From: Leisingera sp. S132
GTDB taxonomy: Bacteria; Pseudomonadota; Alphaproteobacteria; Rhodobacterales; Rhodobacteraceae
Assembly: GCF_025144465.1 (NCBI RefSeq)
Contig: NZ_CP083553.1
Coordinates: 3,036,001-3,100,000, forward strand
Reading direction: 5' to 3'
Length of the DNA: 64,000 nt
Shown piece by piece: positions 50,522 through 63,655 of this stretch. The notes below the pieces were generated by a model that saw only the letters and a program-made list of their open reading frames with translations, had not been told where the DNA came from and made no database searches. Within the stretch, counting starts at the first letter, position 1. Each line of letters starts with the position of its first letter. The position numbers and the translations under genes were made by a program.

Positions 50522-51790
50522 ATGAAATACTGTGTTGGATTGGACGTATCGCTGCGGTCAGTGGCTGTCTGTGTGATTGATTCCGAAGGTGGAACCGTAC
50601 TTGAGCGCGCGGTCGCTTGCGAGATCGATGACATCACTGGTTGTCTGTTAAACTTCGCGGCCCCTGATCTTCGAATTGGTTTCGAAGCAGGCGCGATGAG
50701 CCAACATCTGTTCTTCGGGTTGCAGGCGGTAGGTTTCGACGTCGTGTGCATGGAAGCACGGCAGGTGAATGCGGCACTTTCGGCCATGCGCAACAAGACA
50801 GACAAAACAGACGCACGCGGGATTGCCAATGTGCTTCGATCTGGCTGGTTCAATTCTGCCCATATGAAAAGCCGAGAGGCTCATGCCATTCGGGCGCTGC
50901 TCAGCAGTCGCAAGGCGGTCCAGCGAAAGTGCATCGATCTGGCAAATGAGATACGCGGGCTGTTCCGGATCTTTGGATTGCGGCTGCCATCACGTATCGA
51001 CCAGGCGTCCTTTGATGAGAGGGTGCGTCCCATCATCAAAGCAGACCCAGACCAGTCACATGCCTTGCTGCCGCTGTTGGAGGCCCGAGCGGTTCTCTTC
51101 TCCGCGTACCGGGAACTGGATCGACGCGTGAAGCAAGCGGCCAGCCACAATGAGAACTGCCTGCGCTTCATGGCAATCCCAGGCGTGGGGCCGATCGCGG
51201 CCCTGACCTTCAAAGCGGCGGTGGATGATCCCAAACGCTTCGCCAGTTCCAGAACGGTCTCCACGCATTTTGGCCTGACACCGAGGCGCTACCAGTCCGG
51301 AGAGATGGACAACCCCGGCCGTATCTCGAAGGCGGGAGATGCAGACGTTCGATCCGCGCTATACGCAGCAGCGAACGCGATGATGATGCGATCCGTCGCC
51401 AGCTCTGAGATCAAGAGCTGGGGCCTTCAGTTGATGCGCCGCAAAGGCCGCCGCAGAGCCATTGTCGCCGTTGCCCGCAAGCTTGCTGTCGTCATGCACC
51501 GCATGTGGGCCGACAACACCGAGTTCCGTCAAAGACTGTTGGAGGGCGCCGCATGAACTGAACCTCCAACAATCAATGACGGGAACGTCCCGCACCGGAC
51601 GAGGTCAGCGGATGACGCCGAAAATGGCTGCTGCGCCATTCAAAGCGCGAGACTAAGCTGGGCGTTCCGCGACCGATCCGACACATGCATGCAGCGGTCC
51701 AACCGAACCGGACCAACAATGACTGCGAAGAGAAGCTTGACCCGGATGAGAGACCCTACCCCACAGGATGGAAACGAAACGATGAAATGA
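50440..51790 (+). mobile_element. IS110-family insertion sequence (approximate limits)
   Basis: One transposase ORF lies with about 80 bp before and 230 bp after it inside a gene-poor scar. IS110 elements have no conspicuous terminal inverted repeats, so exact ends cannot be set by eye. Copies of a palindromic repeat lie on both sides. Similar elements in other bacteria often insert into such repeats. Confidence 0.65.
50522..51556 (+). CDS. IS110-family transposase
   Basis: A 344-aa intact transposase with the DEDD RuvC-like N-terminal domain: Asp in YCVGLDVSLRS (about 9), Glu in RIGFEAGAMS (about 57), and two Asp in NKTDKTDARGIANVL (about 95-98). The C-terminal Transposase_20 domain has FMAIPGVGPIAALTF and THFGLTPRRYQSGE, with the conserved Ser region further on. 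TGAGGAG lies 10 bases upstream of ATG. No frameshift; probably functional. Confidence 0.94.
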   Translation: MKYCVGLDVSLRSVAVCVIDSEGGTVLERAVACEIDDITGCLLNFAAPDLRIGFEAGAMSQHLFFGLQAVGFDVVCMEARQVNAALSAMRNKTDKTDARGIANVLRSGWFNSAHMKSREAHAIRALLSSRKAVQRKCIDLANEIRGLFRIFGLRLPSRIDQASFDERVRPIIKADPDQSHALLPLLEARAVLFSAYRELDRRVKQAASHNENCLRFMAIPGVGPIAALTFKAAVDDPKRFASSRTVSTHFGLTPRRYQSGEMDNPGRISKAGDADVRSALYAAANAMMMRSVASSEIKSWGLQLMRRKGRRRAIVAVARKLAVVMHRMWADNTEFRQRLLEGAA

Positions 51791-52255: not shown

Positions 52256-53368
52256 CTAATCTGCAATCAGCTCGGCAGCAAATGTCTCCAGCCGCTTCCG
52301 CTGAAACTGCACGAAGTCCGCCGGCGGCTGGTTGGCTTCGGCGACACCACGGAACGGGTCTTCGACATCGCTCGTGATACCCGCCATGGTGGCGATCACC
52401 TCATGGGCACAGAAAGGCACCACTGCCTCGGCATAGCCGCCCTCATGCACCGCAACCAGTTTGCCATCGCACAGGTCACGGGCGGCCTTCATCACCGCGC
52501 GGGTGAGATAGGCGAATGTGCCGCTGTGCGCAGTCATCCGGCTGAGCGGGTCGAAATTGTTGGCATCAAGCCCGCAGGCGATGATGATCAGATCCGGTTT
52601 GAATTCATAAAGCGCGGGCAGCACCAGCAATTCCATCGCATCGGCATAGGACTGGTGGCCCGCGCCCGGCAACAGCTCGACGTTCAAGTTGCAGCCGGCT
52701 CCTGCTCCCGCGCCGCGCTCCTCCCCCAAGCCGGAGCCGGGCGGGAAGCAGCTTTGCTGGTGGAGTGAGATCGTCAGAACATCATCACGCTCATAGAAGA
52801 TGTCCTGCGTGCCGTTGCCGTGATGCACATCCCAATCCAGCACTGCCACCCGGCCCAGCCCCTTTTCAGCCTTCGCAGCCTCGATGGCGATCGGGATATT
52901 GGCCAGCAGGCAGAAGCCCATGGAGCCGTCGCGCCCGGCATGGTGGCCCGGCGGGCGCGACAGGGCATAGGCGTTCTGATAGGTCCCGTCCAGCACATCG
53001 AAAACCGCCCGCCGCGCCAGCCCTGCCGACAGCGCGGCAATTTCGTAGCTGCCAGCTCCAAATGGCGAGAACAGACCAGCGTTTCCGCCGCCGGCATCGC
53101 TGAGCGCCTTGAAACGCTCAATGTAGTCACTGCTGTGGACTCGCGCCATTTCGCATTCGGTGACGGGCCGGGCGGACTGCACGCCCAGTTGGGCGGTCAG
53201 TCCGGACACATCCATCAGCGACTTCAGCCGCCGCTTGGATTCTGGCGATTCCGCGTGACCGGCGCCAGCGGGCGGCTGCACCCAGCCCCCGACCGGCATG
53301 ATCAGCGCGTGTTCGCCAGTGGTGTGCCACAGGCAATGCTCGTCAAAGTAAAATCCTGTACCCGGCAT
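52256..53368 (-). CDS. HDAC-like amidohydrolase (histone deacetylase/acetylpolyamine amidohydrolase family)
   Basis: A 370-aa class II HDAC-like enzyme, the length of bacterial HDAH. It shows RPPGHHAGRDGSMGFCLLAN (paired catalytic His, about 142-143), VLDWDVHHGNGTQDIFY with Asp/His zinc ligands (about 180-183) and ACGLDANNFDPLSRM with the third ligand Asp (about 268). The catalytic Tyr is expected in HEGGYAEAV. It deacylates acetylated amines, e.g. acetylpolyamines or acyl-lysine. It is last in the seven-gene ABC operon, 26 bp after the outer-membrane gene. Confidence 0.9.
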   Translation of the reverse strand: MPGTGFYFDEHCLWHTTGEHALIMPVGGWVQPPAGAGHAESPESKRRLKSLMDVSGLTAQLGVQSARPVTECEMARVHSSDYIERFKALSDAGGGNAGLFSPFGAGSYEIAALSAGLARRAVFDVLDGTYQNAYALSRPPGHHAGRDGSMGFCLLANIPIAIEAAKAEKGLGRVAVLDWDVHHGNGTQDIFYERDDVLTISLHQQSCFPPGSGLGEERGAGAGAGCNLNVELLPGAGHQSYADAMELLVLPALYEFKPDLIIIACGLDANNFDPLSRMTAHSGTFAYLTRAVMKAARDLCDGKLVAVHEGGYAEAVVPFCAHEVIATMAGITSDVEDPFRGVAEANQPPADFVQFQRKRLETFAAELIAD

Positions 53369-53394: not shown

Positions 53395-54723
53395 TCAGAA
53401 GCGCAGCGTTGCGTTCAGCAGCGCGGTGAACTGGTCGTTGCGGCCACCGCCAAACAGTGTGCCGCCGCCGTCATAGGTGTCGTAGCGAAGCTCTGGCCGG
53501 ATCCGCAGCGCGGGGGTTGCCTGCCACTCCAGCCCCGCCGTCACCGCATAAACATTGCCGCCGGTGGCGCCGTTCGCGGCCCACAGGATGTTGGCGGCGC
53601 TGTCGTCGCGGAACCATTCGGCACGCCCGTTCAGGTGCAGATTGTCCGCAAGCTGGTAACGGGCCTGGGCATTGAGGCCGTACCATTCGCTTTTTTGGGT
53701 AATCGCGCCGGGGGCCGGAATATCGCCGCCCTCCTGAAAGCCGTAGCTGGCCTCAAATGCGAGCGACAGATCAGGGTTCACCTGATGGCCAACCGTCAGG
53801 TAGGCCGCCGCCCGGTCGAGCCGTTCACCGGTGCTGCTGAGCGCGATATAGGCGGAACCGCCGCGGGACGGGCCGTAGGCATCGCCCTCGCCGTCTCCAT
53901 AGACCGCCTCGAAGTCGACCCAGGTTCGGAAATCCGCACTGCGCCAGCGCAGCGCGCCGATCAGCGTCGGGCGGCTGTCTTCCACCGTGCTCCAGCCGGT
54001 CACGGCGCCCAGCTCAAAGCCCCAGAGACCGGCTCCCTCCCGCGTGGGCAGACGAGAGCTGATCAGCACGCCGGTATGGGTCCCAGGCCCATGCTGCAGG
54101 CTGTAGGTATGGGTGGAAAACCAGTTGGGCGGGGTGAAAGGCAGGCCGATTTCCTTACCAGAGACTGGCGACAGGAAGTTCCCCGCCAAGACCGTAGTGC
54201 CGCCCAGCAACGGCAGATAGACCTCAGCATAGGCCTGCGGGAAGGCCAGCTTGTTGTCATCGTCCAGATCGGAGGTGAAGTCGTCAAACCCCGCAGTACG
54301 GAAGAAGTCGGAATCCCTCCCATAGGTCGCGGTGATATTGAAACCGAACTCCACCTGCTCGCCGCGCGGCCCCGGAAACGGGCCGACCCGGGCGATAACG
54401 CCTTGCGGGCGGCCGGCCAGCGGACCGGGGCAGCTGATGCCACGGCAGAACACCAATCCCAGCTGGTTGAGGTTCAGCCCCTCCTCGCCGGAGAAGAACG
54501 CGCCATTGCCGAGTGCTCCGTCCGCGCCAGTGCTGGACGCCGTGATGGCGGTTGCATCCACCCAGCCCAAGACACCAATACGGTGGTTCTTTTCCAGGCC
54601 GTCGCCCGCGATGCTGCGGAACAAGGACCCGTAGGCATCCAGTGGCGGCGCATCCTGAGCACGGGTAGCGGCAGGCAGCAGTGATCCGGCCAGCCAGGCG
54701 GCCAGCGTCAAACTCTTCTTCAT
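53395..54723 (-). CDS. Outer-membrane beta-barrel protein
   Basis: A 442-aa protein with a signal peptide (MKKSLTLAAWLAGSLLPAATRAQ, cleavage near residue 22), alternating amphipathic strands throughout and a C-terminal Phe (LLNATLRF), as in barrel insertion signals. It probably forms a channel for the operon's substrate. ATG at 54723 has AGGAGGGG upstream; the frame is open far beyond (to 55056) without support. Sixth gene of the ABC operon. Exact family not recognised. Confidence 0.75.
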   Translation of the reverse strand: MKKSLTLAAWLAGSLLPAATRAQDAPPLDAYGSLFRSIAGDGLEKNHRIGVLGWVDATAITASSTGADGALGNGAFFSGEEGLNLNQLGLVFCRGISCPGPLAGRPQGVIARVGPFPGPRGEQVEFGFNITATYGRDSDFFRTAGFDDFTSDLDDDNKLAFPQAYAEVYLPLLGGTTVLAGNFLSPVSGKEIGLPFTPPNWFSTHTYSLQHGPGTHTGVLISSRLPTREGAGLWGFELGAVTGWSTVEDSRPTLIGALRWRSADFRTWVDFEAVYGDGEGDAYGPSRGGSAYIALSSTGERLDRAAAYLTVGHQVNPDLSLAFEASYGFQEGGDIPAPGAITQKSEWYGLNAQARYQLADNLHLNGRAEWFRDDSAANILWAANGATGGNVYAVTAGLEWQATPALRIRPELRYDTYDGGGTLFGGGRNDQFTALLNATLRF

Positions 54724-54755: not shown

Positions 54756-55682
54756 TCAGACGGCCCTTCTGATATTGGGGAGCAGGCGGTCCAGCAGGCC
54801 GCTCAGCCCCCGCGGCGCCAACAGCATCACCGCAACCGCGATGAGGCCGAGGGCAATCTGGCTCCAGCCGGGATAGGCGGCGAGCCCCTCCCGCAGAAGT
54901 ACGAACAGCAGCACGCCGAGCACCGGGCCGCGGATTGTGCCAAGCCCCCCGATCACGCAGATGAAGATCGCGTTCACCGTCCAGTTGATGTCGAAGGCGG
55001 CGATTGGTGAGACATAGAGCGTGCCAAGAAAACTGATGGCGCCGGCCATGCCGCACCCCGCCGCCGAAAGGACAAAGATGGTCCCTTTGATCCGCCGGGT
55101 TTTCACCCCCAGCGAGCGGGCGGCGGTTTCGTCATCGCGCATCGCATGGACATGCAGGCCATAGGGGCTTTGCTGCAGCAGCCACAGCCCCAGACACAGC
55201 CCCGCGGCCAGTGCCAGCGCAAACCAGTGCGCCGACGCGGGCAGCCAGCTGGTGTCGATCCGCCGCGCCGCATAAAGCGGCAGGCCGGACGAGCTTCCGA
55301 AGTAGTCCAGTCGGCCGACAACGATTTTTATGATCTCTGCCGCCACCCACATGCCGATGGCGAAATAGACCTCGCGCAGGCGGAACAGAACCGGGGTCAG
55401 GGCAAGCGCCAGCAGCGCCGCCCCGGCCCCGGACAACGGGACCATGATGTAGGGAGAGACAGGCAGGTCCCGTGTGACGGCAAACAAGAGGTACGCCCCG
55501 GTGGCGACAAAAGCGTGGTGGCCAAGCGACAGGAGGCCGCCATAACCCGCCAGCAAGTTCCAGCTTTGGGCGATGGCCAGCAGCACCAGCATTTCGGTCA
55601 GCAGCGCCAGCCCGCCTGCATTCAGCGCAAAAGGCGCGGCAGCAAGTGCAGTGAGCAAAAGGGCGAGAAATGAGCGGGTCAT
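54756..55682 (-). CDS. livM: Branched-chain amino acid-type ABC permease (LivM-like)
   Basis: A 308-aa permease with eight to ten helices. It contains the LivM EAA-like signature GRVRDDETAARSLGV-type region (MHAMRDDETAARSLGVKT, about 185-202) and FVATGAYLLFA near residue 57. Its start overlaps the LivH stop (ATGA). Fifth gene of the operon. HAAT permeases pair with LivH in the inner membrane. Confidence 0.9.
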   Translation of the reverse strand: MTRSFLALLLTALAAAPFALNAGGLALLTEMLVLLAIAQSWNLLAGYGGLLSLGHHAFVATGAYLLFAVTRDLPVSPYIMVPLSGAGAALLALALTPVLFRLREVYFAIGMWVAAEIIKIVVGRLDYFGSSSGLPLYAARRIDTSWLPASAHWFALALAAGLCLGLWLLQQSPYGLHVHAMRDDETAARSLGVKTRRIKGTIFVLSAAGCGMAGAISFLGTLYVSPIAAFDINWTVNAIFICVIGGLGTIRGPVLGVLLFVLLREGLAAYPGWSQIALGLIAVAVMLLAPRGLSGLLDRLLPNIRRAV

Positions 55683-56548
55683 CGTGTCACCACCTTTCCG
55701 GCAAGCCCCTGCGGGCGGATGAGAAGGAAGACCAGCAGAAGCAGGTGCCCGTAGAGCAGCCCCGACGCCGGATCAAAGTAGAAGCCCGCCACATGCACCA
55801 GCGCCAGGGCGATGCCGCCAAGATAGCTGGCCCAGATTGAGCCAAGGCCGCCGATCACGATCACCTCAAAGGCGATGAGCAGCCGCTCCGCACCGGAAAA
55901 CGGCGTGATCGAACTGCGTGAGGCCAGCAGCATTCCCGCCAGTGCCGCACAGGCTGCGGAGACTGCCATGGCAATGGCAAAGATGCGCCGGCGGCGGATT
56001 GCAAACAGCGCCACGGTTTCCGCATCATCAGAGGTTGCGCGCACGGCACGGCCCAGCCGGGTTTTGCTCAGGATCAGATGCAGCCCGCCGAACAGCGACA
56101 GCGACAGCAGAAAGATGCCCAGCGGCAGCCAGCCGATTGTCTGGCCTGCAATGGTGAGATTGGCGGTTTTGACCGCGCCCAGGTCGATGCTGCGGCTGTT
56201 GGCGCCATAAAGGCCGACCATGGCATTCTGCATCACTACCGACAGGCCGAATGTGACCAGAAGGGCAGGCATTGGATCGGGGCTCAGCACCCGGTTCAGC
56301 AGCTGGGTCTGCAGCAGCCAGCCAAAGGCGAAGGCGCCCGCGCAGACCAGCGGCATCAGCAAGAGCGGGCTGACGGGCCAGGCCGCGCTGAGGGTAAACA
56401 GCACCAGCGCGCCGGCAATGGCCAGCTCGCCATGGGCGATATTGGCAATCCGCATGACACCGAAGATCAGCGACAGTCCCAGCCCGAACAGCGCATAGAG
56501 CCCGCCCAGGAACAGCCCGTTCATCAGGATTTCTATGGCTGTGCTCAT
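55679..56548 (-). CDS. livH: Branched-chain amino acid-type ABC permease (LivH-like)
   Basis: A 289-aa permease of the LivH type: GLFLGGLYALFGLGLSLIFGVMRIANIAHGELAIAGA at the start (about 12-48) and an EAA-like LGRAVRATSDDAETVALFAI loop (about 184-203). The overlaps at both ends (ATGA with LivM and with LivF) show a single translationally coupled unit. Confidence 0.92.
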   Translation of the reverse strand: MSTAIEILMNGLFLGGLYALFGLGLSLIFGVMRIANIAHGELAIAGALVLFTLSAAWPVSPLLLMPLVCAGAFAFGWLLQTQLLNRVLSPDPMPALLVTFGLSVVMQNAMVGLYGANSRSIDLGAVKTANLTIAGQTIGWLPLGIFLLSLSLFGGLHLILSKTRLGRAVRATSDDAETVALFAIRRRRIFAIAMAVSAACAALAGMLLASRSSITPFSGAERLLIAFEVIVIGGLGSIWASYLGGIALALVHVAGFYFDPASGLLYGHLLLLVFLLIRPQGLAGKVVTR

Positions 56549-57249
56549 TGGTTCTCTCCGAAATAGGCCTGACTCACCCGCTCGAAACAGGCACCGTCCG
56601 AAGCGCCTGCCAGCGACACTTGCCCGCCGAGCATGCAGTAGAAACGGTCAGAGGCTGCCAGCGCCCTGCGGATGTCCTGTTCGACCAGCACAATGGTGGT
56701 GCCGCGCGCCTTGAGGCCGGCCAAAGCCTCATACACCCGATCAACAATCACTGGCGCCAGCCCGAGGGAGGCCTCATCCACCAGCAAAAGCTCCGGGTTG
56801 GTCATCAGCGCGCGGCCGATGGCCACCATTTGCTGCTGGCCGCCCGACAGCAGACCTGCAGGCCGCTGCGCCATCGGCGCGATTTCGTCGAACAGCTCCA
56901 GCACCCGCGGCAGGGTCCAGTAGCCGCGCCGTCCGACATCGCCGCCGATCATCAGGTTTTCCGCCACGGTCAGGCTGGGGAACAGCCGCCGCCCCTCCGG
57001 AACCATGGCAATGCCGCGCTGCGCCAGCGCGCCGGGATCCAGCGCCAGAATGTCCTGCCCGGCAAAGGTCAGCTGTCCGGCCTCGCGTGTGCCCAGCCCG
57101 GCAATCGCGCGCAGCAGCGTGGTCTTTCCCGCGCCATTGGCCCCGATCAGCGCGACGGTCTCCCCCTCGTCCACATGGGCATCAATCCCGAACAGGGCCT
57201 GGAAATCGCCATAGCGCGCGGTCAGGTTCTGCATCTGCAACAGGGTCAT
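56545..57249 (-). CDS. livF: ABC transporter ATP-binding protein (LivF-like)
   Basis: A 234-aa ATPase: Walker A GANGAGKTTLL (about 36-46), signature LLSGGQQQMVAIGRAL and Walker B ELLLVDEASLGLAP. The shorter LivF type, lacking the LivG-specific insertion. It overlaps LivG and LivH by four bases on each side. Confidence 0.93.
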   Translation of the reverse strand: MTLLQMQNLTARYGDFQALFGIDAHVDEGETVALIGANGAGKTTLLRAIAGLGTREAGQLTFAGQDILALDPGALAQRGIAMVPEGRRLFPSLTVAENLMIGGDVGRRGYWTLPRVLELFDEIAPMAQRPAGLLSGGQQQMVAIGRALMTNPELLLVDEASLGLAPVIVDRVYEALAGLKARGTTIVLVEQDIRRALAASDRFYCMLGGQVSLAGASDGACFERVSQAYFGENQ

Positions 57250-57959
57250 GCCGCCGCCCCCAGATAAAGCGCGCGCACCTGCGGGTCGGCGGCAACCACC
57301 TCCGGGCGGTCCTCGATCAGCTTGCGACCCAGCGCAAGCATCATAATCCGGTCAGAGGCCTCCTGCAGCGCATGGGCGATATGTTCGATCCACAGCACCG
57401 CCAGCCCCGCCTCCTTCAGGCGTTTGACCAGCACAACCATCTCGGCGGTTTCCTGATCGGTCAGCCCGCCGGACACCTCATCCAGCAGGATCACCTTTGG
57501 ATCAGAGGCCAGCGCCTTGGCCAGTTCGAGCCGTTTGCGGTCCAACAACCGCAGCGCGGTACCGAAGTTGTTGCGGCGCGGTCCAAGGCCGGTGATCTCC
57601 AGGATCTCCTCCACCCTTGCCCGTGCGGCCTTGGGCGCGATGCCGTGGCTGGCGTGCTGGGCCAGATACAGGGTGTCGCTGACGCTCAGCGAGGCAAAGG
57701 CGCGCGGCACCTGAAATGCGCGTGCCAGCCCGGCGCGCACCCGCCCGGCGGTGTCGAACCCGGTGACATCGCACCCGGCCACATGGACAGACCCGCCATC
57801 GGCGCGTGTGACGTCGGTCAGGAGGTCAAAGAACGTGCTCTTGCCCGCGCCATTGGCCCCCATTATCCCGAGGCAATTGCCCGGTGCGACGGTGACCGAG
57901 ACATCCTCGATCACCCGCAGGCCGCCAAACGCCTTGCTGAGATTGCGTGCTTCCAGCAT
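57246..57959 (-). CDS. livG: ABC transporter ATP-binding protein (LivG-like)
   Basis: A 237-aa ATPase: Walker A GANGAGKSTFF (about 34-44), Walker B KVILLDEVSGGLTDQE. The signature region reads ALRLLDRKRLELAKAL instead of the usual LSxGQ: LLDRKRLE retains the LivG form (Leu-x-x-x-x-x-R-x-E) but the Ser is absent, which is worth noting. It follows the binding-protein gene with a 3-bp gap. Confidence 0.9.
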   Translation of the reverse strand: MLEARNLSKAFGGLRVIEDVSVTVAPGNCLGIMGANGAGKSTFFDLLTDVTRADGGSVHVAGCDVTGFDTAGRVRAGLARAFQVPRAFASLSVSDTLYLAQHASHGIAPKAARARVEEILEITGLGPRRNNFGTALRLLDRKRLELAKALASDPKVILLDEVSGGLTDQETAEMVVLVKRLKEAGLAVLWIEHIAHALQEASDRIMMLALGRKLIEDRPEVVAADPQVRALYLGAAA

Positions 57960-57962
57960 GGC

Positions 57963-59243
57963 TCAGACCTTGGGCAACGCGATGGTTTCACTTTCGACGC
58001 GAATGTCGGGTGCGAGGGCGTTTTCGGTAATCACCAGTTCAAACGCGTGCTTGCCGGAGGACTTGCGCCACTGGCCGCCCGCCAGCTGGGTCTTCGCCAC
58101 GTTTTTGACAGGGCTGGAGGCAAAATCCACCGGCCCCACAACCGTGTCCAGTTTTGTGGCAGCAAAGACGTCGCGGACTGCGGCGCGGTCCTTGGGGGCG
58201 CCGGACTGCACCAGCGCATTCAGGCCCACCTCGAACAGCGCATGGCTGTAGCCCAGCGTCTGCACCCATTGCGCGTTGCTGCCCGCCTCCCAGGCATCTG
58301 CCAGCTCACGGGCACTTTGCCCGGTGAAGGATGAGGCGAAGGGCACATTCGGGGTCCACCAGACCTCAGTTGTCATGCCATCGCCGCGTGCGCCCATCGC
58401 TTCAATCGCCTGCGGGAACAGAAAGGCCGCCGCAAAGGTGCAGGCCTTTGGGGTGTAACCAGCCTGCCCCGCCTGGTTCCAGAAGGTGATCCAATGCGGC
58501 GGGAAGCCGAAGCCGGTCACAATATCGGCGCTGGCGTCGCGGAAGCGGCTGACCTGAGCGGAATAGTCATCCGAGTCGATCTTGAACATGCCGCCCTCAG
58601 TGCGCGAGTAACCGCCCCGCTCGATGAAGCCAGGCAACCCCATCGCCGGATCGGCAAAGGCCTGTCCGACTGGGTTGTCGAGATAGAAATCGCCAACGCT
58701 CTTGTTGGTGTCGATCTGATCCCAAAGCCGCACAAAGGTGCTCATGGCGTCATCTGCGCCCCAAAAGAAATGGAAGGTCCAAGGAAAGCCCTGTTCAGGG
58801 TTGGAGCCGCGCGGGAACATCCAGGCCTGCCAGGGCTGCATCGTGCTCATCGTCGGGATGCCATGAATATCGGCGATTTCGCCCAAAGCCACCGCTGCAT
58901 CGCCGTCGTTGATCAGCAGCATATCGACCTGATCGCGCAGGATCAGCTCATTGCCAGCGGAGATTGAGCGGTTCATGTTGGACTGGTTGTCCTTCACGAT
59001 GATCTCCACCTCATGGGAGCTGCCACCTGAGTTCAGCCCGCCCTCCAGCTGCTTGCGGATGCTGTCGACCATCCACTGGTCCGATGTCCCGAACGAGGCG
59101 CGCGGCCCGCTCAGCGGCGAGATGAAGCCGATCCGCACCTTCTTGGAAGCAGCGGTTGCAATGGATGGCATCGCCAGTGCGCCGGTTGCGGCGGCCGTTC
59201 CGGCCAGGAAACTGCGGCGGCTGAAAGATGTGAGTTTGGTCAT
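57963..59243 (-). CDS. ABC transporter substrate-binding protein, Tat-exported
   Basis: A 426-aa HAAT (type I periplasmic binding fold) protein. A twin-arginine signal, SRRSFLAGTAAATGALAMP (about 8-26), ends at an AxA site (ATAAS). Then KKVRIGFISPLSGPRASFG is the classic Leu/Ile/Val-binding start. First gene of the operon, so it sets the substrate; ligand unknown. AGGGAGGA precedes ATG. An 18-bp palindrome lies 51 bp upstream of the start. Confidence 0.92.
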   Translation of the reverse strand: MTKLTSFSRRSFLAGTAAATGALAMPSIATAASKKVRIGFISPLSGPRASFGTSDQWMVDSIRKQLEGGLNSGGSSHEVEIIVKDNQSNMNRSISAGNELILRDQVDMLLINDGDAAVALGEIADIHGIPTMSTMQPWQAWMFPRGSNPEQGFPWTFHFFWGADDAMSTFVRLWDQIDTNKSVGDFYLDNPVGQAFADPAMGLPGFIERGGYSRTEGGMFKIDSDDYSAQVSRFRDASADIVTGFGFPPHWITFWNQAGQAGYTPKACTFAAAFLFPQAIEAMGARGDGMTTEVWWTPNVPFASSFTGQSARELADAWEAGSNAQWVQTLGYSHALFEVGLNALVQSGAPKDRAAVRDVFAATKLDTVVGPVDFASSPVKNVAKTQLAGGQWRKSSGKHAFELVITENALAPDIRVESETIALPKV

Positions 59244-59293: not shown

Positions 59294-59311
59294 ATAGTGC
59301 AGATGCACTAT
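59294..59311. promoter_or_regulatory. Palindromic operator, copy 1 (ABC operon)
   Basis: ATAGTGCA-GA-TGCACTAT with perfect eight-bp arms, 51 bp upstream of the binding-protein ATG. It matches the copy at 60408-60425 except for one central base. LuxR-family regulators bind 18-20-bp dyads of this size. Confidence 0.75.
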
Positions 59312-59424
59312 CCGGCTGCGGGCTTTTGTTCGACCCTGCAGCGCTTGCGGATACAGAAAGAAGCTGCAGAAAATCAGCAGCCTAGTCCCGGATTCAACTC
59401 AATTGCAAAAGGCCGGGCGCAGCT

Positions 59425-60372
59425 CTAGCGCGGCAGGCCGCCCGCCAAGCGGAGCAGTTCGACTTTGTTGTGAACGCCAGTTTTCCGGTAAACGGAGGCC
59501 GCCTGATTCCGCACGGTATTGATTGAAACGCCAGATTCTTCGGCAATCGCCCGCATGGTCGCCCCGGCAATCAGCAGCTCCGCCACCCGGCGTTCCTTCG
59601 GGGACAGCCGGTTCAGCGGGCTGACGGGCTGGGCCGAAACCAGCCACAGATCGTCCAAATAGCGAACGCGGCTGAAAGTGGTCCCGGAAGGTGCGGTAAC
59701 CACCGCTTGCCCAGCGAATTCCCGCATCATGGCGGTCGGCTTCTGCCCTGGCTCCAGTCCGTCTTTCACCGCGCCATTGAAACCGGAAGAGCACAGGAAT
59801 AGCTCGCCCTCGTGATCAAGCAGCCCCCATTCGTTACAGGGATCCACACGCAAACCCAAATCCAGCTGCAGGCACATCGACAGCGCCTGTTCCAGATGCC
59901 GCAGGATAGCCAGGAAATCCGTTGTCTCCGTATCGGTAAAGGCCGGGTTCTGGCCATGCCGGTAGAGTGACATGAAGAAATTGAATGGCCCCTCGCGCAC
60001 CTTGCAATGGCCGTTCAGCATCTGGGTCAGGTCGAATTCCGCTGCAAATACTTTAAATCCGGGATCTGTCACAGCATCCTCGACAGACAATGACCGGGCA
60101 TACCGTTTCAGGGAGCGGCCTGTGCGCACGAAAGGGTCATTTACCAGATGCGCCTTGACCTTGGGCTCGAACCCGTCTGGCAGGCCGCTGACCATCGTAT
60201 GCACCATCGCGATCTTGCCGCCGCGGAACACTGACCAGCCCCACCAGGCGGAATCGAACACCGTAATCCCGCGCATCAGCCCGATCATGTACTGCTGGAA
60301 ATGCAGCGGCGTATGGGTGTTGGCCTTGTCCATCAGGCTCAGCACAAATTCACTCAGATCATAGCGGTTCAT
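59425..60372 (-). CDS. LuxR-family (solo) transcriptional regulator
   Basis: A 315-aa regulator. The N-terminal 220 residues form a sensor with a GAF/PAS-like composition (HFQQYMIGLMRGITVFDSAWW, LFLCSSGFNGAVKDG) that I cannot assign to the homoserine-lactone domain. The C-terminal LuxR HTH (about 245-310) contains LSPKERRVAELLIAGATMRAIAEESGVSINTVRNQAASVYRKTGVHNKVEL. No luxI is nearby. It sits between the ABC operon and the divergent NTF2-like/ALDH operon, 36 bp from operator copy 2, suggesting autoregulation. Confidence 0.88.
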   Translation of the reverse strand: MNRYDLSEFVLSLMDKANTHTPLHFQQYMIGLMRGITVFDSAWWGWSVFRGGKIAMVHTMVSGLPDGFEPKVKAHLVNDPFVRTGRSLKRYARSLSVEDAVTDPGFKVFAAEFDLTQMLNGHCKVREGPFNFFMSLYRHGQNPAFTDTETTDFLAILRHLEQALSMCLQLDLGLRVDPCNEWGLLDHEGELFLCSSGFNGAVKDGLEPGQKPTAMMREFAGQAVVTAPSGTTFSRVRYLDDLWLVSAQPVSPLNRLSPKERRVAELLIAGATMRAIAEESGVSINTVRNQAASVYRKTGVHNKVELLRLAGGLPR

Positions 60373-60407
60373 GAGGTCAGGTTATCCCGTGCCAAGCTGC
60401 CACCCGC

Positions 60408-60425
60408 ATAGTGCATATGCACTAT
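60408..60425. promoter_or_regulatory. Palindromic operator, copy 2 (luxR / NTF2-like-ALDH divergent region)
   Basis: ATAGTGCATATGCACTAT is a perfect 18-bp palindrome. It lies 36 bp upstream of the LuxR-type start and 87 bp upstream of the NTF2-like start, so one site can control both directions. Confidence 0.8.
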
Positions 60426-60511
60426 ACAGTCGCTTCCTTTCCCTGACTAGCGTTGCTGTCAGCGCCCCGGAAAAGTCTGGGACAGGCGCAAACGCAAGGG
60501 AGGATTGCACC

Positions 60512-60892
60512 ATGACTGCTACGCTGAAAGACGTGATCGCCACCAAGTCCCGCCAGTTCGAGGCGAATTTCGCCGCCGGCGATGTCGCCGCGCTGGTGGA
60601 GGACTACTATACCCCCGACCCGGTGGTGATCGGCCAAGGAATTGGAACCTTTTCCGGCCGGGATGGTGCCTCGGCCTATTTCCTTGGCGCCGTGCAGGAC
60701 ATGAAAACGGCGCAGTTATCCACCACATCGGTGCAGCATGAGGGCAGCAGCGCCATTGAAACCGGCCGGGTGGTGCTGACACCGCGTGCTGAGGGCGCAG
60801 GTGATATCCATCTGGCCTATGTGGTGGTCTGGCAGAACGGCGAGGACGGCTGGAAGGTCCACATGGACTATTTCATGCCCGCCGCCGCCTGA
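60512..60892 (+). CDS. NTF2-like/SnoaL-type small protein
   Basis: A 126-aa cone-shaped NTF2-fold protein: KSRQFEANFAAGDVAALVEDYYTPDPVVIGQGIG, and WKVHMDYFMP at the end (DUF4440/YybH-like). Such proteins are isomerases, hydrolases or ligand binders, and the catalytic role cannot be told. AGGGAGGA lies 8-14 bases before ATG. It is 23 bp upstream of the aldehyde dehydrogenase, with which it is co-transcribed. Confidence 0.85.
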   Translation: MTATLKDVIATKSRQFEANFAAGDVAALVEDYYTPDPVVIGQGIGTFSGRDGASAYFLGAVQDMKTAQLSTTSVQHEGSSAIETGRVVLTPRAEGAGDIHLAYVVVWQNGEDGWKVHMDYFMPAAA

Positions 60893-60915: not shown

Positions 60916-62316
60916 ATGAAATTTGAAATGACAATCGGCGGCGCCCCCGCTCCCGCGGCTGCCCGCTTCGATGTGGCCAATCCGGCAGGCGGGCTGGCAG
61001 GCCGAGCACCAAACGGAACACTGGCGGACCTAGACCGTGCGGTAGCAGCCGCGCAGGAGGCCTTTGCCAGCTGGTCGCAGCTGTCCCATGCCGACCTTCA
61101 GCGCTATTGCGAGGCTGTAACAGCCAAGATCGCGGAGCATGCCGAAGAGCTTGCTCAGCTGATCACGGCTGAACAGGGCAAGCCGCTCAATGGCCTCGGA
61201 TCACGTTTTGAGATGGGCGGCGCCCAAGCCTGGGCTGGATACACCGCTGAGCTGTCGCTGCCGGTCAAGGTGCTGCAGGACGACGCCGAAGGCCGGATTG
61301 AGCTGCATCGCAAACCGCTTGGTGTCGTCGGTTCGATCACCCCCTGGAACTACCCAGTTATGATAGCGGTTTGGCACATCCTGCCCGCGCTGCGGACCGG
61401 CAATACAGTGGTGATCAAACCCTCGCCGCTGACTCCGCTCAGCACGCTGCGGCTTGTGGCTTTGCTAAACGAAGTGCTGCCTGCGGGTGTTCTCAATTGT
61501 ATCACCGGAGACGACCAGACTGACAACCTGGGAGCGGCAATGTCTGCCCATCCGGGTATCCGCAAGATTGTCTTCACCGGCTCTTGCACGACCGGAGAGA
61601 AGATTATGACCGCGGCTGCGCCGACAATGAAGCGGCTGACGCTGGAAATGGGTGGCAATGACGCGGGCATCGTGCTGCCGGATGCAGACCCCCAGGCGAT
61701 TGCCGAAGGGCTGTTCTGGGGCGCTTTCATCAACAACGGCCAGACCTGCGCCGCGCTGAAGCGGCTCTATGTTCATGAGGACATCCATGACGCAGTCTGC
61801 GCCGCGCTGGTGGAATTTGCCCGCACCATTCCGGTGGGTCCGGGATCTGACGAATCCTCTATCCTTGGCCCGCTGCAGAATCCCATGCAGCACGCCAAGG
61901 TTTCCCGTCTCGTTGCCGCTGCCCGCGAAAAGGGTCAACTGCTGCTGGGCGGCAACCCAGGTAAAGGGCTGTTTTTTGAGCCGACAATCATTGCCGGTCT
62001 TACCAATGGCGACCCGCTGGTGGATGAAGAACAGTTTGGCCCGGCCCTGCCGGTGATCAAGTACAATGACGTGGAAGAGGCGATTGCCGCCGCCAACGGC
62101 AGCCCCAACGGGCTGGGCGGGTCGGTGTGGTCCAGTGATATTGCCAAGGCGTGCACCGTCGCGGCACGGCTGGAATGCGGCTCTGTCTGGATCAACAAGC
62201 ACGGGGCAATCCAGCCCAACGCGCCCTTTGGCGGGGTGAAATCCTCGGGGCTCGGCGTGGAGTTCGGCGAGGAGGGGCTGGCGGAATACACCGATATCCA
62301 AGTGGTGTTCGCCTGA
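60916..62316 (+). CDS. Aldehyde dehydrogenase family protein
   Basis: A 466-aa NAD(P)+-dependent ALDH: TPWNYPV (about 144-150), general base Glu in LTLEMGGNDAGIV (about 236) and nucleophile Cys in NNGQTCAALKRLYV (about 270). It oxidises an aldehyde to the acid; the aldehyde is unknown. With the ABC importer and deacetylase it suggests catabolism of an amine through an aminoaldehyde-like intermediate (inference). CAAGGAGAA precedes ATG. Confidence 0.93.
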   Translation: MKFEMTIGGAPAPAAARFDVANPAGGLAGRAPNGTLADLDRAVAAAQEAFASWSQLSHADLQRYCEAVTAKIAEHAEELAQLITAEQGKPLNGLGSRFEMGGAQAWAGYTAELSLPVKVLQDDAEGRIELHRKPLGVVGSITPWNYPVMIAVWHILPALRTGNTVVIKPSPLTPLSTLRLVALLNEVLPAGVLNCITGDDQTDNLGAAMSAHPGIRKIVFTGSCTTGEKIMTAAAPTMKRLTLEMGGNDAGIVLPDADPQAIAEGLFWGAFINNGQTCAALKRLYVHEDIHDAVCAALVEFARTIPVGPGSDESSILGPLQNPMQHAKVSRLVAAAREKGQLLLGGNPGKGLFFEPTIIAGLTNGDPLVDEEQFGPALPVIKYNDVEEAIAAANGSPNGLGGSVWSSDIAKACTVAARLECGSVWINKHGAIQPNAPFGGVKSSGLGVEFGEEGLAEYTDIQVVFA

Positions 62317-62344: not shown

Positions 62345-62719
62345 CTAGCCTGCGCTGTCGTAACGCTCCCGCGCCGACATGATTTCCGGCTGTTTCGCCA
62401 CCGCCCAGGCGGCCATTGCGCCTATCGGTTCAAACAACGATTTGCCCAGCTCCGTGATGGCATAATCAACCCGCGGCGGGACCACCGGAGTGACCCTGCG
62501 CGCCACCAGCCCATCCCGCTCGAGCTGCCGCAAGGTCTGGGTCAGCATCCGCTGCGAGACATCCGGGATTGACCGCTGAATCTCGGAAAACCGGTGTTCC
62601 CCGTCCCTCAGCAGCAGGATCACCAGCAGGCTCCATTTGCCGCTGATCTGCGCCAGCACTGTCCGGATCGGGCACAGATCCAGCCCCAGCTCCCGTTCGA
62701 GTTCTTCACGCCGCTTCAT
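62345..62719 (-). CDS. HxlR family transcriptional regulator
   Basis: A 124-aa single-domain HxlR protein: CPIRTVLAQISGKWSLLVILLLRDGEHRFSEIQRSIPDVSQRMLTQTLRQLERDGLV (about 16-72), with the conserved N-terminal Cys at about 16. Divergent from the tandem SnoaL-like gene; inverted repeats at 62731-62784 lie between them. Confidence 0.92.
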   Translation of the reverse strand: MKRREELERELGLDLCPIRTVLAQISGKWSLLVILLLRDGEHRFSEIQRSIPDVSQRMLTQTLRQLERDGLVARRVTPVVPPRVDYAITELGKSLFEPIGAMAAWAVAKQPEIMSARERYDSAG

Positions 62720-62730
62720 GGATTTTCCTT

Positions 62731-62784
62731 AGTTACTAAAAAGTGCCTACTTCCGAATTGAAACTTCGGTTCCTATTAGTAACT
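62731..62784. promoter_or_regulatory. HxlR operator region with nested inverted repeats
   Basis: Nine-bp arms AGTTACTAA (62731-62739) and TTAGTAACT (62776-62784) are separated by 36 bp. A smaller CCGAA-N7-TTCGG dyad lies inside (62753-62769). Two regulator dimers could bind the outer elements. Confidence 0.55.
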
Positions 62785-62824
62785 CATGTACCCGACTCAA
62801 GCAACTGTCACGATGGAGACTGCA

Positions 62825-63655
62825 ATGACACTTCTTAAAAAAGCAGCCGCAGCTGTGCTTGCCTCCGCCGCCGCGACCAGCGCCGCCGCAGACCCAGCAG
62901 AAAACAAGGCCACAGCCGTTGCCCTCTTGGAGCAGGGCCTCGCCAAGGGCGATCGCGATTTCATTCGCGCGCATGTCGCCGAGGATTACATCCAGCACAA
63001 CCCGCAGGCCGCCGATGGGCGCGAAGGGCTGCTGGGCTTTGTTGATTTTCTTGAGACCCTGGATCCGCCAGTGCAGGTGAACCCGATCAGGGTGTTCGGC
63101 GATGAAAATTTCGTGGTGATCCACCAGACTGCAGAGTTCTTCGGGCCGAAGGTGATCATCGACCTGTTCCGCTTTGAAGACGGCAAGCTGGTGGAGCATT
63201 GGGATGCGATCCAGGATGAAGTGACTGAGACCGCCAGCGGCCGTTCCATGATTGATGGCACCACCGAAATCACAGATCTGGACAAGACCGACGCCAACAA
63301 GGCACTGGTCACCGGCCTCGTCACCGACGTGCTGATGGGCGGCGACCTTGCCAGGATCGACAGCTACATCCGCGCCGACTACATGCAGCACAACCCCTAT
63401 GTGCCGGACACCCGCGACGGACTGAAGGGGTTCATCGCCTATCTGGCCGAGAACGAAATCTCCTTCGGCTACACGAAGCTGCACAATGTGGTGGCTGAAG
63501 GCAATTTCGTGATGACCCAGGCCGAAGGCATCTACGACAGCAAACCCACGGCCTTCTATGACCTGTGGCGCGTCGAGGATGGGCTGATCGCCGAACATTG
63601 GGACGCGGTGCAGGAAATCCCTGCCGAGTTCGTCCACGGCAACGGCATGTTCTGA
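62825..63655 (+). CDS. Secreted tandem SnoaL-like (NTF2-fold) protein
   Basis: A 276-aa protein with a signal peptide (LLKKAAAAVLASAAATSAAAD, cleavage near residue 22). Two SnoaL-like repeats follow (about 25-140 and 155-270), each with an HNP motif (YIQHNPQAADGREGL; YMQHNPYVPDTRDGL) and EHWDA(I/V)QE at its end. The duplication suggests an intramolecular dimer. The role is unknown, probably periplasmic. GGAG lies eight bases before ATG at 62825; ATG at 62786 and 62813 are weaker starts. Confidence 0.85.
   Translation: MTLLKKAAAAVLASAAATSAAADPAENKATAVALLEQGLAKGDRDFIRAHVAEDYIQHNPQAADGREGLLGFVDFLETLDPPVQVNPIRVFGDENFVVIHQTAEFFGPKVIIDLFRFEDGKLVEHWDAIQDEVTETASGRSMIDGTTEITDLDKTDANKALVTGLVTDVLMGGDLARIDSYIRADYMQHNPYVPDTRDGLKGFIAYLAENEISFGYTKLHNVVAEGNFVMTQAEGIYDSKPTAFYDLWRVEDGLIAEHWDAVQEIPAEFVHGNGMF

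What the first reader, a model, noticed from the sequence alone, without database searches (positions are those of the whole stretch)
59294..60425. An 18-bp palindrome marks a three-unit regulon around a solo LuxR-type regulator
ATAGTGCA-GA-TGCACTAT (59294-59311) and ATAGTGCATATGCACTAT (60408-60425) differ by one central base and were not seen elsewhere in the window. One is upstream of the seven-gene ABC operon. The other lies between the LuxR-type gene and the divergent NTF2-like/ALDH pair. Seen: identity and position. Known: LuxR-family regulators bind 18-20-bp dyads. Inference: the 315-aa LuxR-type protein binds both sites and controls all three units, including itself.
Basis: partly seen in the sequence, partly recalled or inferred. 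Interest (0 to 1): 0.8.

Follow-up and report, generated by a model that had tools for sequence, protein, structure and literature searches.

The report
Operator pair of a LuxR-type regulator
Two near-identical 18-base mirror-image DNA sites are very probably the docking sites of the neighbouring LuxR-type regulator, which would switch on a transporter operon and a divergent enzyme pair; the same kind of site accompanies related regulators in other bacteria, even beside quite different genes.

Summary
ATAGTGCANNTGCACTAT occurs at 59294-59311 and 60408-60425 and nowhere else exactly in the genome. It was found exactly in 1 of 394 family genomes, the window's own. In the genus it occurs (up to 1 mismatch) in the same 2 of 21 genomes that carry the regulator.

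The site follows the regulator, not the genes. It flanks the orthologue in Ruegeria pomeroyi and sits beside relatives about 24% identical that precede unrelated operons. An orthologous Variovorax operon beside an AraC-type gene lacks it. All 13 sites with up to 2 mismatches in 462 kb of fetched loci lie within 102 bases of luxR, although 10 of 22 regulators with the same helix letters have none. Nine of ten promoters have TA 22-25 bases beyond the site, which puts the site near -43, as in a classical activator.

Binding, and activation of the ABC operon and NTF2/ALDH pair, are well supported by comparison but unproven at the bench. Autoregulation is weakly supported: in R. pomeroyi only 23 bases separate site and luxR start. 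The protein lacks the autoinducer-binding domain; its ligand is unknown, perhaps an amide.

The parts
59294..59311 (.). 18-bp operator 1, ATAGTGCAGATGCACTAT, upstream of the ABC operon (50 bases before the substrate-binding protein start codon)
   Evidence: conserved in L005 (1 mismatch) and R. pomeroyi L038 (1 mismatch)
60408..60425 (.). 18-bp operator 2, ATAGTGCATATGCACTAT, between luxR and the divergent NTF2-like/ALDH pair
   Evidence: exact in L005 and L038
59266..59271 (-). inferred -10 element TACCGT of the ABC operon promoter, 23 bases beyond operator 1
   Evidence: register conserved across targets; inference
60448..60453 (+). inferred -10 element TAGCGT of the NTF2/ALDH promoter, 23 bases beyond operator 2
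   Evidence: inference
59425..60372 (-). LuxR/GerE-type regulator, 315 aa; HTH at residues 255-310 with T286-V-R-N-Q290 in the inferred recognition helix; N-terminal domain without a Pfam match
57963..59243 (-). ABC substrate-binding protein (Peripla_BP_6), first gene of the operon
   Evidence: 88.7% identical in R. pomeroyi
57246..57959 (-). ABC ATPase (LivG-like)
56545..57249 (-). ABC ATPase (LivF-like)
55679..56548 (-). ABC permease (LivH-like)
54756..55682 (-). ABC permease (LivM-like)
53395..54717 (-). BBP2-type outer-membrane porin; present in L005, no match in the R. pomeroyi stretch
52256..53368 (-). class II histone-deacetylase-type amidohydrolase, last gene of the operon
60512..60892 (+). 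NTF2-like protein (DUF4440/SnoaL_2)
60916..62316 (+). aldehyde dehydrogenase

Best explanation
The two palindromes are the operators of the LuxR/GerE-type protein encoded between them. A homodimer binds each 18-bp dyad (half-site ATAGTGCA) centred near -43, taking the place of a -35 box, and recruits RNA polymerase to an otherwise weak promoter. In response to an unknown ligand of its uncharacterised N-terminal domain it activates (1) the seven-gene importer, porin and amidohydrolase operon and (2) the divergent NTF2-like/ALDH pair. Shown: site identity, rarity, co-occurrence with the regulator, and conserved promoter register. Inferred: binding, activation and dimerisation. Guess: the ligand is an N-acyl (amide) compound or its breakdown product.
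For: Only two exact sites in the genome. Exact site in 1 of 394 family genomes, the own one, with the backwards control in one other. In the genus, site and regulator are both in the same 2 of 21 genomes. Flanking pair conserved in R. pomeroyi, LuxR 63% identical. Single exact or near-exact sites beside LuxR relatives with unrelated or unidentified targets: Rhizobium alvei L006 and L080 (Amidohydro_3 plus Liv-type ABC), Maritalea L042 (24% identity over A1; VWA operon), L040, L052, L053, L054, L079, L086. All 13 sites with up to 2 mismatches in 462,413 bases of 31 loci (window left out) lie within 102 bases of luxR. 12 of 21 regulators with R-N-[QHT] in the recognition helix have such a site against 0 of 9 with R-H, R-T or R-V (Fisher p = 0.004; not corrected for kinship) and 0 of 2 with S-N-H. 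TA at 22-25 bases beyond the site in 9 of 10 targets, with 0 of 20,000 rotations reaching that. The orthologous Variovorax operon beside an AraC-type gene has no site.
Against: No binding or expression data. Nine of the 21 regulators with the R-N helix have no site with up to 2 mismatches: L039 and L058 have weak 4-mismatch candidates without a -10 in register, L088 and L089 a related dyad, L081-L085 nothing clear. L090, with R-H-H, has a 4-mismatch dyad, so 4-mismatch candidates prove little. L054/L079 have good sites but no TA in register. Regulators and targets within a clade are not independent. The N-terminal domain could not be modelled.
Confidence: 0.85

Rival explanations
1. The regulator binds both sites but acts as a repressor, or represses its own gene from operator 2 while activating the two flanking units. 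Autorepression is the likelier form of self-control, because the site abuts the luxR start.
For: In R. pomeroyi only 23 bases, and in the window 35, separate operator 2 from the luxR ATG, so a bound dimer would cover the luxR promoter region.
Against: For the flanking units the site lies upstream of the -10 in activator register with no good -35 box by eye. In 8 of 12 loci with a site it is only downstream of luxR. In the window and L005 a GATAAC or GATACC lies in activator register towards luxR, which would give a leaderless mRNA in the window.
Confidence: 0.3
2. A different protein (for example the HxlR-type regulator at 62345-62719 or a global factor) uses the palindromes.
For: Other regulators lie close by, and HxlR is conserved in L005 and R. 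pomeroyi.
Against: The site recurs beside LuxR relatives in L006 and L080, where among the 15 window proteins searched only LuxR and general ABC ATPases have a match, and beside L042 with other genes. It is absent in exact form from 393 family genomes, so a global factor is unlikely.
Confidence: 0.05
3. The pair are repeats that mark the ends of a mobile luxR cassette or form a terminator, not operators.
For: In the window, L005 and L038 the two copies flank luxR closely.
Against: L006, L040, L042, L052, L053, L054, L079, L080 and L086 have one copy only in the stretches fetched. There is no T run after the sites, the two-base centre makes a poor hairpin loop (general knowledge), and the conserved -10 register points to promoters.
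Confidence: 0.03

Closest known systems
LuxR/GerE-type (NarL/FixJ, PF00196) one-component activators with a site near -42.5, as LuxR at the lux box (recalled)
   Same: GerE HTH; palindromic site taking the place of the -35 box; divergent and flanking targets
   Different: the N-terminal domain has no Autoind_bind or response-regulator match; the operator is an 18-bp AG(N10)CT dyad and lacks the CT(N12)AG of known lux boxes (motif quoted from a passage of PMC4338825)
DmfR of Paracoccus aminophilus pAMI2, LuxR-family activator of dimethylformamidase in the presence of DMF (passage of PMC4543880; the original Dziewit 2010 paper is not held)
   Same: LuxR-family activator of an amide-hydrolase operon, induced by an amide
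   Different: its sequence and operator were not available here, so kinship is untested
LuxR-type gene before the amidase of Variovorax sp. RA8 plasmid 4 (L058; that the amidase is the linuron hydrolase LibA is recalled)
   Same: T-V-R-N-Q helix, alignable N-terminal domain (18% identity in A2), gene order luxR then hydrolase
   Different: only a 4-mismatch site candidate and no -10 in register
LuxR solos of roseobacters surveyed in PMC4338825 (passages only)
   Same: no luxI-type family among the ten neighbouring proteins scanned; palindromes without the lux-box core reported for some of their operons
   Different: those solos are defined by an autoinducer-binding domain, for which this protein has no match

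Membership tests
LuxR/GerE-type HTH regulators (PF00196) | C-terminal GerE HTH above the curated cut-off | tested here: met
   39.9 bits against 23.5, residues 255-310; best PDB sequence matches are GerE, FixJ, RcsB over the HTH
Quorum-sensing LuxR / LuxR solo | Autoind_bind domain PF03472 | tested here: not met
   No match in the full protein at E up to 0.001 nor in the 10 N-terminal domains of A2 at E up to 5; a PF03472 search at E up to 1e-10 rings in the own genome at two other loci only
Quorum-sensing LuxR / LuxR solo | N-terminal fold like the autoinducer-binding domain | tested here: inconclusive
   hhalign probability 0.3% with shallow profiles; AlphaFold2 under pLDDT 50 for residues 1-170; the structural comparison tests little beyond the HTH
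lux box | 20-bp dyad with CT(N12)AG | tested here: not met
   the site reads AG(N10)CT; definition from a passage
Class II-type activator arrangement | site centred near -42 with the -10 in fixed register | tested here: met
   TA 22-25 bases beyond the site in 9 of 10 targets; the transcription starts themselves are inferred
DmfR-like amide-responsive regulators | sequence kinship and induction by an amide | not testable with these tools
   pAMI2 record under the accession tried and the original paper are not held

The most novel reading that the evidence does not exclude
A so far unnamed family of one-component LuxR-type activators, with its own sensor domain, carries a portable operator whose half-site depends on the first residues of the recognition helix (R-N-Q/H with ATAGnGCA, and a variant ATGATGCA). 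It has been coupled in different proteobacteria to unrelated operons, often amide-hydrolysing ones (class II deacetylase-type amidohydrolase, Amidohydro_3, amidase), so a regulator and its 18-bp site would spread as a unit and capture new targets.
Probability: 0.45. Interest if true: 0.55.

Novelty: new member of a known kind. Interest (0 to 1): 0.45.

Why it matters
It turns a two-site sequence observation into a defined regulator, operator and promoter set that can be tested directly in Ruegeria pomeroyi DSS-3, a laboratory strain with the same arrangement. It gives a likely operator for a LuxR-type subfamily whose sensor domain matches no Pfam family, and a first table of recognition-helix letters against half-sites. 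It also suggests how one regulator and its site can be moved onto unrelated operons.

Tried and rejected
A profile search with the full protein over 385 class genomes found only the own genome at E <= 1e-25; searches with the N-terminal domains found more: 5 of 199 genomes of the R. alvei family, 4 of 289 of the class, 8 of 299 of the phylum at E <= 1e-8, own or query genome included. The protein search over 295 family genomes gave matches in 186 at E <= 0.001, but outside the own genome the best listed are E 8.7e-11 and weaker and mostly cover the HTH; of these only L009 (23% over residues 6-306) was looked at, and it has no site; a second partial N-terminal match (in G034) was not. AlphaFold2 with the three rows allowed gave mean pLDDT 54 and under 50 for residues 1-170, so no fold is claimed for the sensor domain; the VIA-align comparison covered mainly the HTH. 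The hhalign comparison with autoinducer-binding domains gave probability 0.3%. A PDB search with the N-terminal profile gave one match at E 0.88, taken as chance.

Paper searches (all ten used): the bare site strings hit 1,019 papers; the 30 listed looked unrelated by title. LuxR with deacetylase, R. pomeroyi and ABC transporter gave 0 papers. The locus tags SPOA0095-SPOA0100, guessed from memory for this region, gave 0. Linuron/libA/LuxR gave 1, LuxR-solo/palindrome/regulon terms 1; looser searches and one on DmfR listed nothing on this operator by title or abstract start. The claim that the operator is not in print rests on these searches of open-licence papers only. Passages of PMC3676327, PMC5911999 (a luxR/luxI pair beside hylA) and PMC10413115 gave nothing on it.

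Considered and rejected: terminator or RNA hairpin, mobile-cassette ends, HxlR operator (see rivals). Weak site candidates in L039 and L058 were not counted as sites. L062, a truncated relative with an IS21-type helper gene nearby, was left out of the 32-row tables. The shuffles are first-order Markov samples, 500 per locus. The targets of L054, L086, L088 and L089 have no Pfam match in the ORFs tried, and some of those ORFs may be wrongly framed.

Full report
OBSERVATION. In the window, three matches occur at up to 3 mismatches against 0.05 expected from shuffles; the third has 3 mismatches. In the whole genome only these two are exact for the inner 16 bases; at up to 2 mismatches there are 5 places against 7 for the backwards control. 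The gene layout is as stated.

RARITY AND CO-OCCURRENCE. The exact 18-mer was found in 1 of 394 genomes of the family (about one per genus), the window's own, which has two copies; the backwards control hit one other genome. In the genus, 2 of 21 genomes have the LuxR-type gene, the same 2 of 21 have the site at up to 1 mismatch, and the same 2 have the close substrate-binding protein (100 and 95% identity; four others have 42% relatives). The second genome, G312, carries a contig of the same length as Leisingera sp. SS27 contig3 (407,847 bases), so the window very likely belongs to the genus of that strain.

RELATIVES. R. pomeroyi DSS-3 has the same arrangement on its megaplasmid: LuxR 63%, SBP 89%, deacetylase-type protein 83%, NTF2 64%, ALDH 79% identical, no porin match. 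Its sites are ATAGTGCAGATGCACTAT upstream of luxR and TTAGTGCATCTGCACTAT downstream. These are the only two on the plasmid at up to 1 mismatch in the inner 16; its chromosome was not searched. Rhizobium alvei (L006, LuxR 63%) and a second genome of its family (L080, 62%) have a close relative of the regulator and the same site but an unrelated target, an Amidohydro_3 enzyme with another Liv-type ABC set. The R. alvei genome holds one such site at up to 1 mismatch, and its backwards control also one. Plasmids of Maritalea, Martelella, Roseinatronobacter and Croceibacterium carry relatives (Maritalea and Martelella 24% identical to the window's over A1) with ATAGTGCATTTGCACTAT, ATAGGGCAAATGCTCTAT, ATAGAGCAAATGCTCTAT and ATAGAGCATTTGCACTAT right after luxR and before operons with VWA, Yip1 or Ig-like proteins. 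Nitratireductor L054 and genome G834 (L079) have GTAGTGCATCTGCACTAT; L086 has ATGATGCAATTGCACTAT.

COUNTS. Of 32 regulators examined together (window and 31 loci), 12 have a site with up to 2 mismatches within about 350 bases; in each of these 12, none of 500 Markov samples did as well. All 12 have Arg-Asn and Gln or His in the helix (T-V-R-N-Q/H), among 21 with R-N-[QHT]; none of the 9 with R-H, R-T or R-V and none of the 2 with S-N has it. The Fisher test (12/9 against 0/9, the two S-N rows dropped) gives p = 0.004 but ignores kinship; on the tree the site-bearers fall in three separate groups. Against the reading: 9 of the 21 lack it. L088 and L089 have a perfect dyad of a related kind, ATGATGCANNTGCATCAT; L039 and L058 have 4-mismatch candidates; L081-L085 have nothing clear. 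L090, with R-H-H, also has a 4-mismatch dyad. In 462,413 bases of the 31 loci all 13 sites with up to 2 mismatches lie within 102 bases of luxR.

PROMOTER REGISTER. Aligning the DNA beyond the sites shows TA 22-25 bases after the site in 13 of 16 rows. Those rows leave out the L005 promoters, the luxR sides of the window, L005, L038 and L086, and the weak sites of L039 and L058, which show no TA there (by eye). In a set of ten targets, 9 have it, and in 20,000 random rotations no 4-offset window anywhere reached 9. Two of the ten (L040, L042) are orthologous operons and two (L088, L089) have the variant dyad. With T at -12 the site centre is near -43, the classical place of a LuxR-type activator (recalled). 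There is no good -35 box at the expected place (by eye). Misses: L054, L079 and the luxR side of L088.

SELF-CONTROL. In R. pomeroyi luxR begins 23 bases after the site, and in the window 35. A promoter in the same register would start at the ATG in the window and inside the gene in R. pomeroyi. Of the 12 loci with a site, 8 have it only downstream of luxR, 3 on both sides and 1 upstream only. Activation of luxR from this site is therefore not conserved; autorepression, or no self-control, is likelier.

NEGATIVE CONTROL. Variovorax paradoxus VAI-C carries an orthologous ABC plus deacetylase operon (SBP 51%, deacetylase 56%) next to an AraC-type regulator and an amidase, with no LuxR annotated in the 17-kb stretch; the best site match there has 4 mismatches and lies inside a gene. 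The same replicon has a distant member of the family elsewhere (L056, R-H-Y helix, no such site).

PROTEIN. GerE HTH at residues 255-310; the N-terminal 246 residues match nothing in Pfam at E up to 5 and no solved structure convincingly by sequence. It is not a PF03472 quorum-sensing LuxR by sequence; the own genome has two of those elsewhere. The model was poor.

FUNCTION (inference). Deacetylase-type amidohydrolases of the same class lie beside these regulators in 5 of the 7 loci compared: L005, L038, L039 (54%), L041 (56%), L059 (43%); L006 and L080 lack one. L006, L080 and L058 have Amidohydro_3 or amidase genes instead. L039, L041 and L059 have no counted site. In Agrobacterium and Pantoea plasmids the deacetylase lies next to homoprotocatechuate genes. 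An N-acyl amine imported by the Liv-type transporter, cleaved by the amidohydrolase and oxidised through an aldehyde by the ALDH is a reasonable guess. DmfR, a LuxR-family activator that responds to dimethylformamide (passage in PMC4543880), fits but could not be compared.

VERDICT. Very probably two real operators of a local LuxR-type activator; the regulon of two flanking units is well supported by comparison, self-control is not. Ordinary in kind, with a useful recognition table and evidence of target swapping.

Noticed in passing
L040, L042, L052, L053 (plasmids): The same kind of operator and regulator stand before operons with VWA, Yip1 or Ig-like proteins on plasmids of four genera, perhaps an unstudied surface-protein set.
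   Followed up: partly
L039 4222-18306 and L102 1-9110: Class II histone-deacetylase-type gene and ALDH beside homoprotocatechuate (hpa) genes in Agrobacterium and Pantoea plasmids, which hints at an N-acyl arylethylamine as substrate.
   Followed up: no
L062 3983-4309: Truncated relative of the regulator in Martelella sp. NC18 with an IS21-type helper gene nearby.
   Followed up: no
window 62345-63655: Divergent HxlR-type regulator and a second NTF2-like protein, conserved next to the cluster in L005 and R. pomeroyi (78-95% identity).
   Followed up: partly
window 50522-51556: ORF of 344 aa that looks like an IS110-type transposase (by eye, from memory) beyond the end of the operon.
   Followed up: no
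L056 4858-4877, L057 5986-6003, L090 5867-5884: Relatives with other recognition helices have other dyads with the same CA-NN-TG centre (for example ACCGTTCAAATGAACGGG), which may point to a wider helix-to-site code; their chance rate was not worked out.
   Followed up: partly
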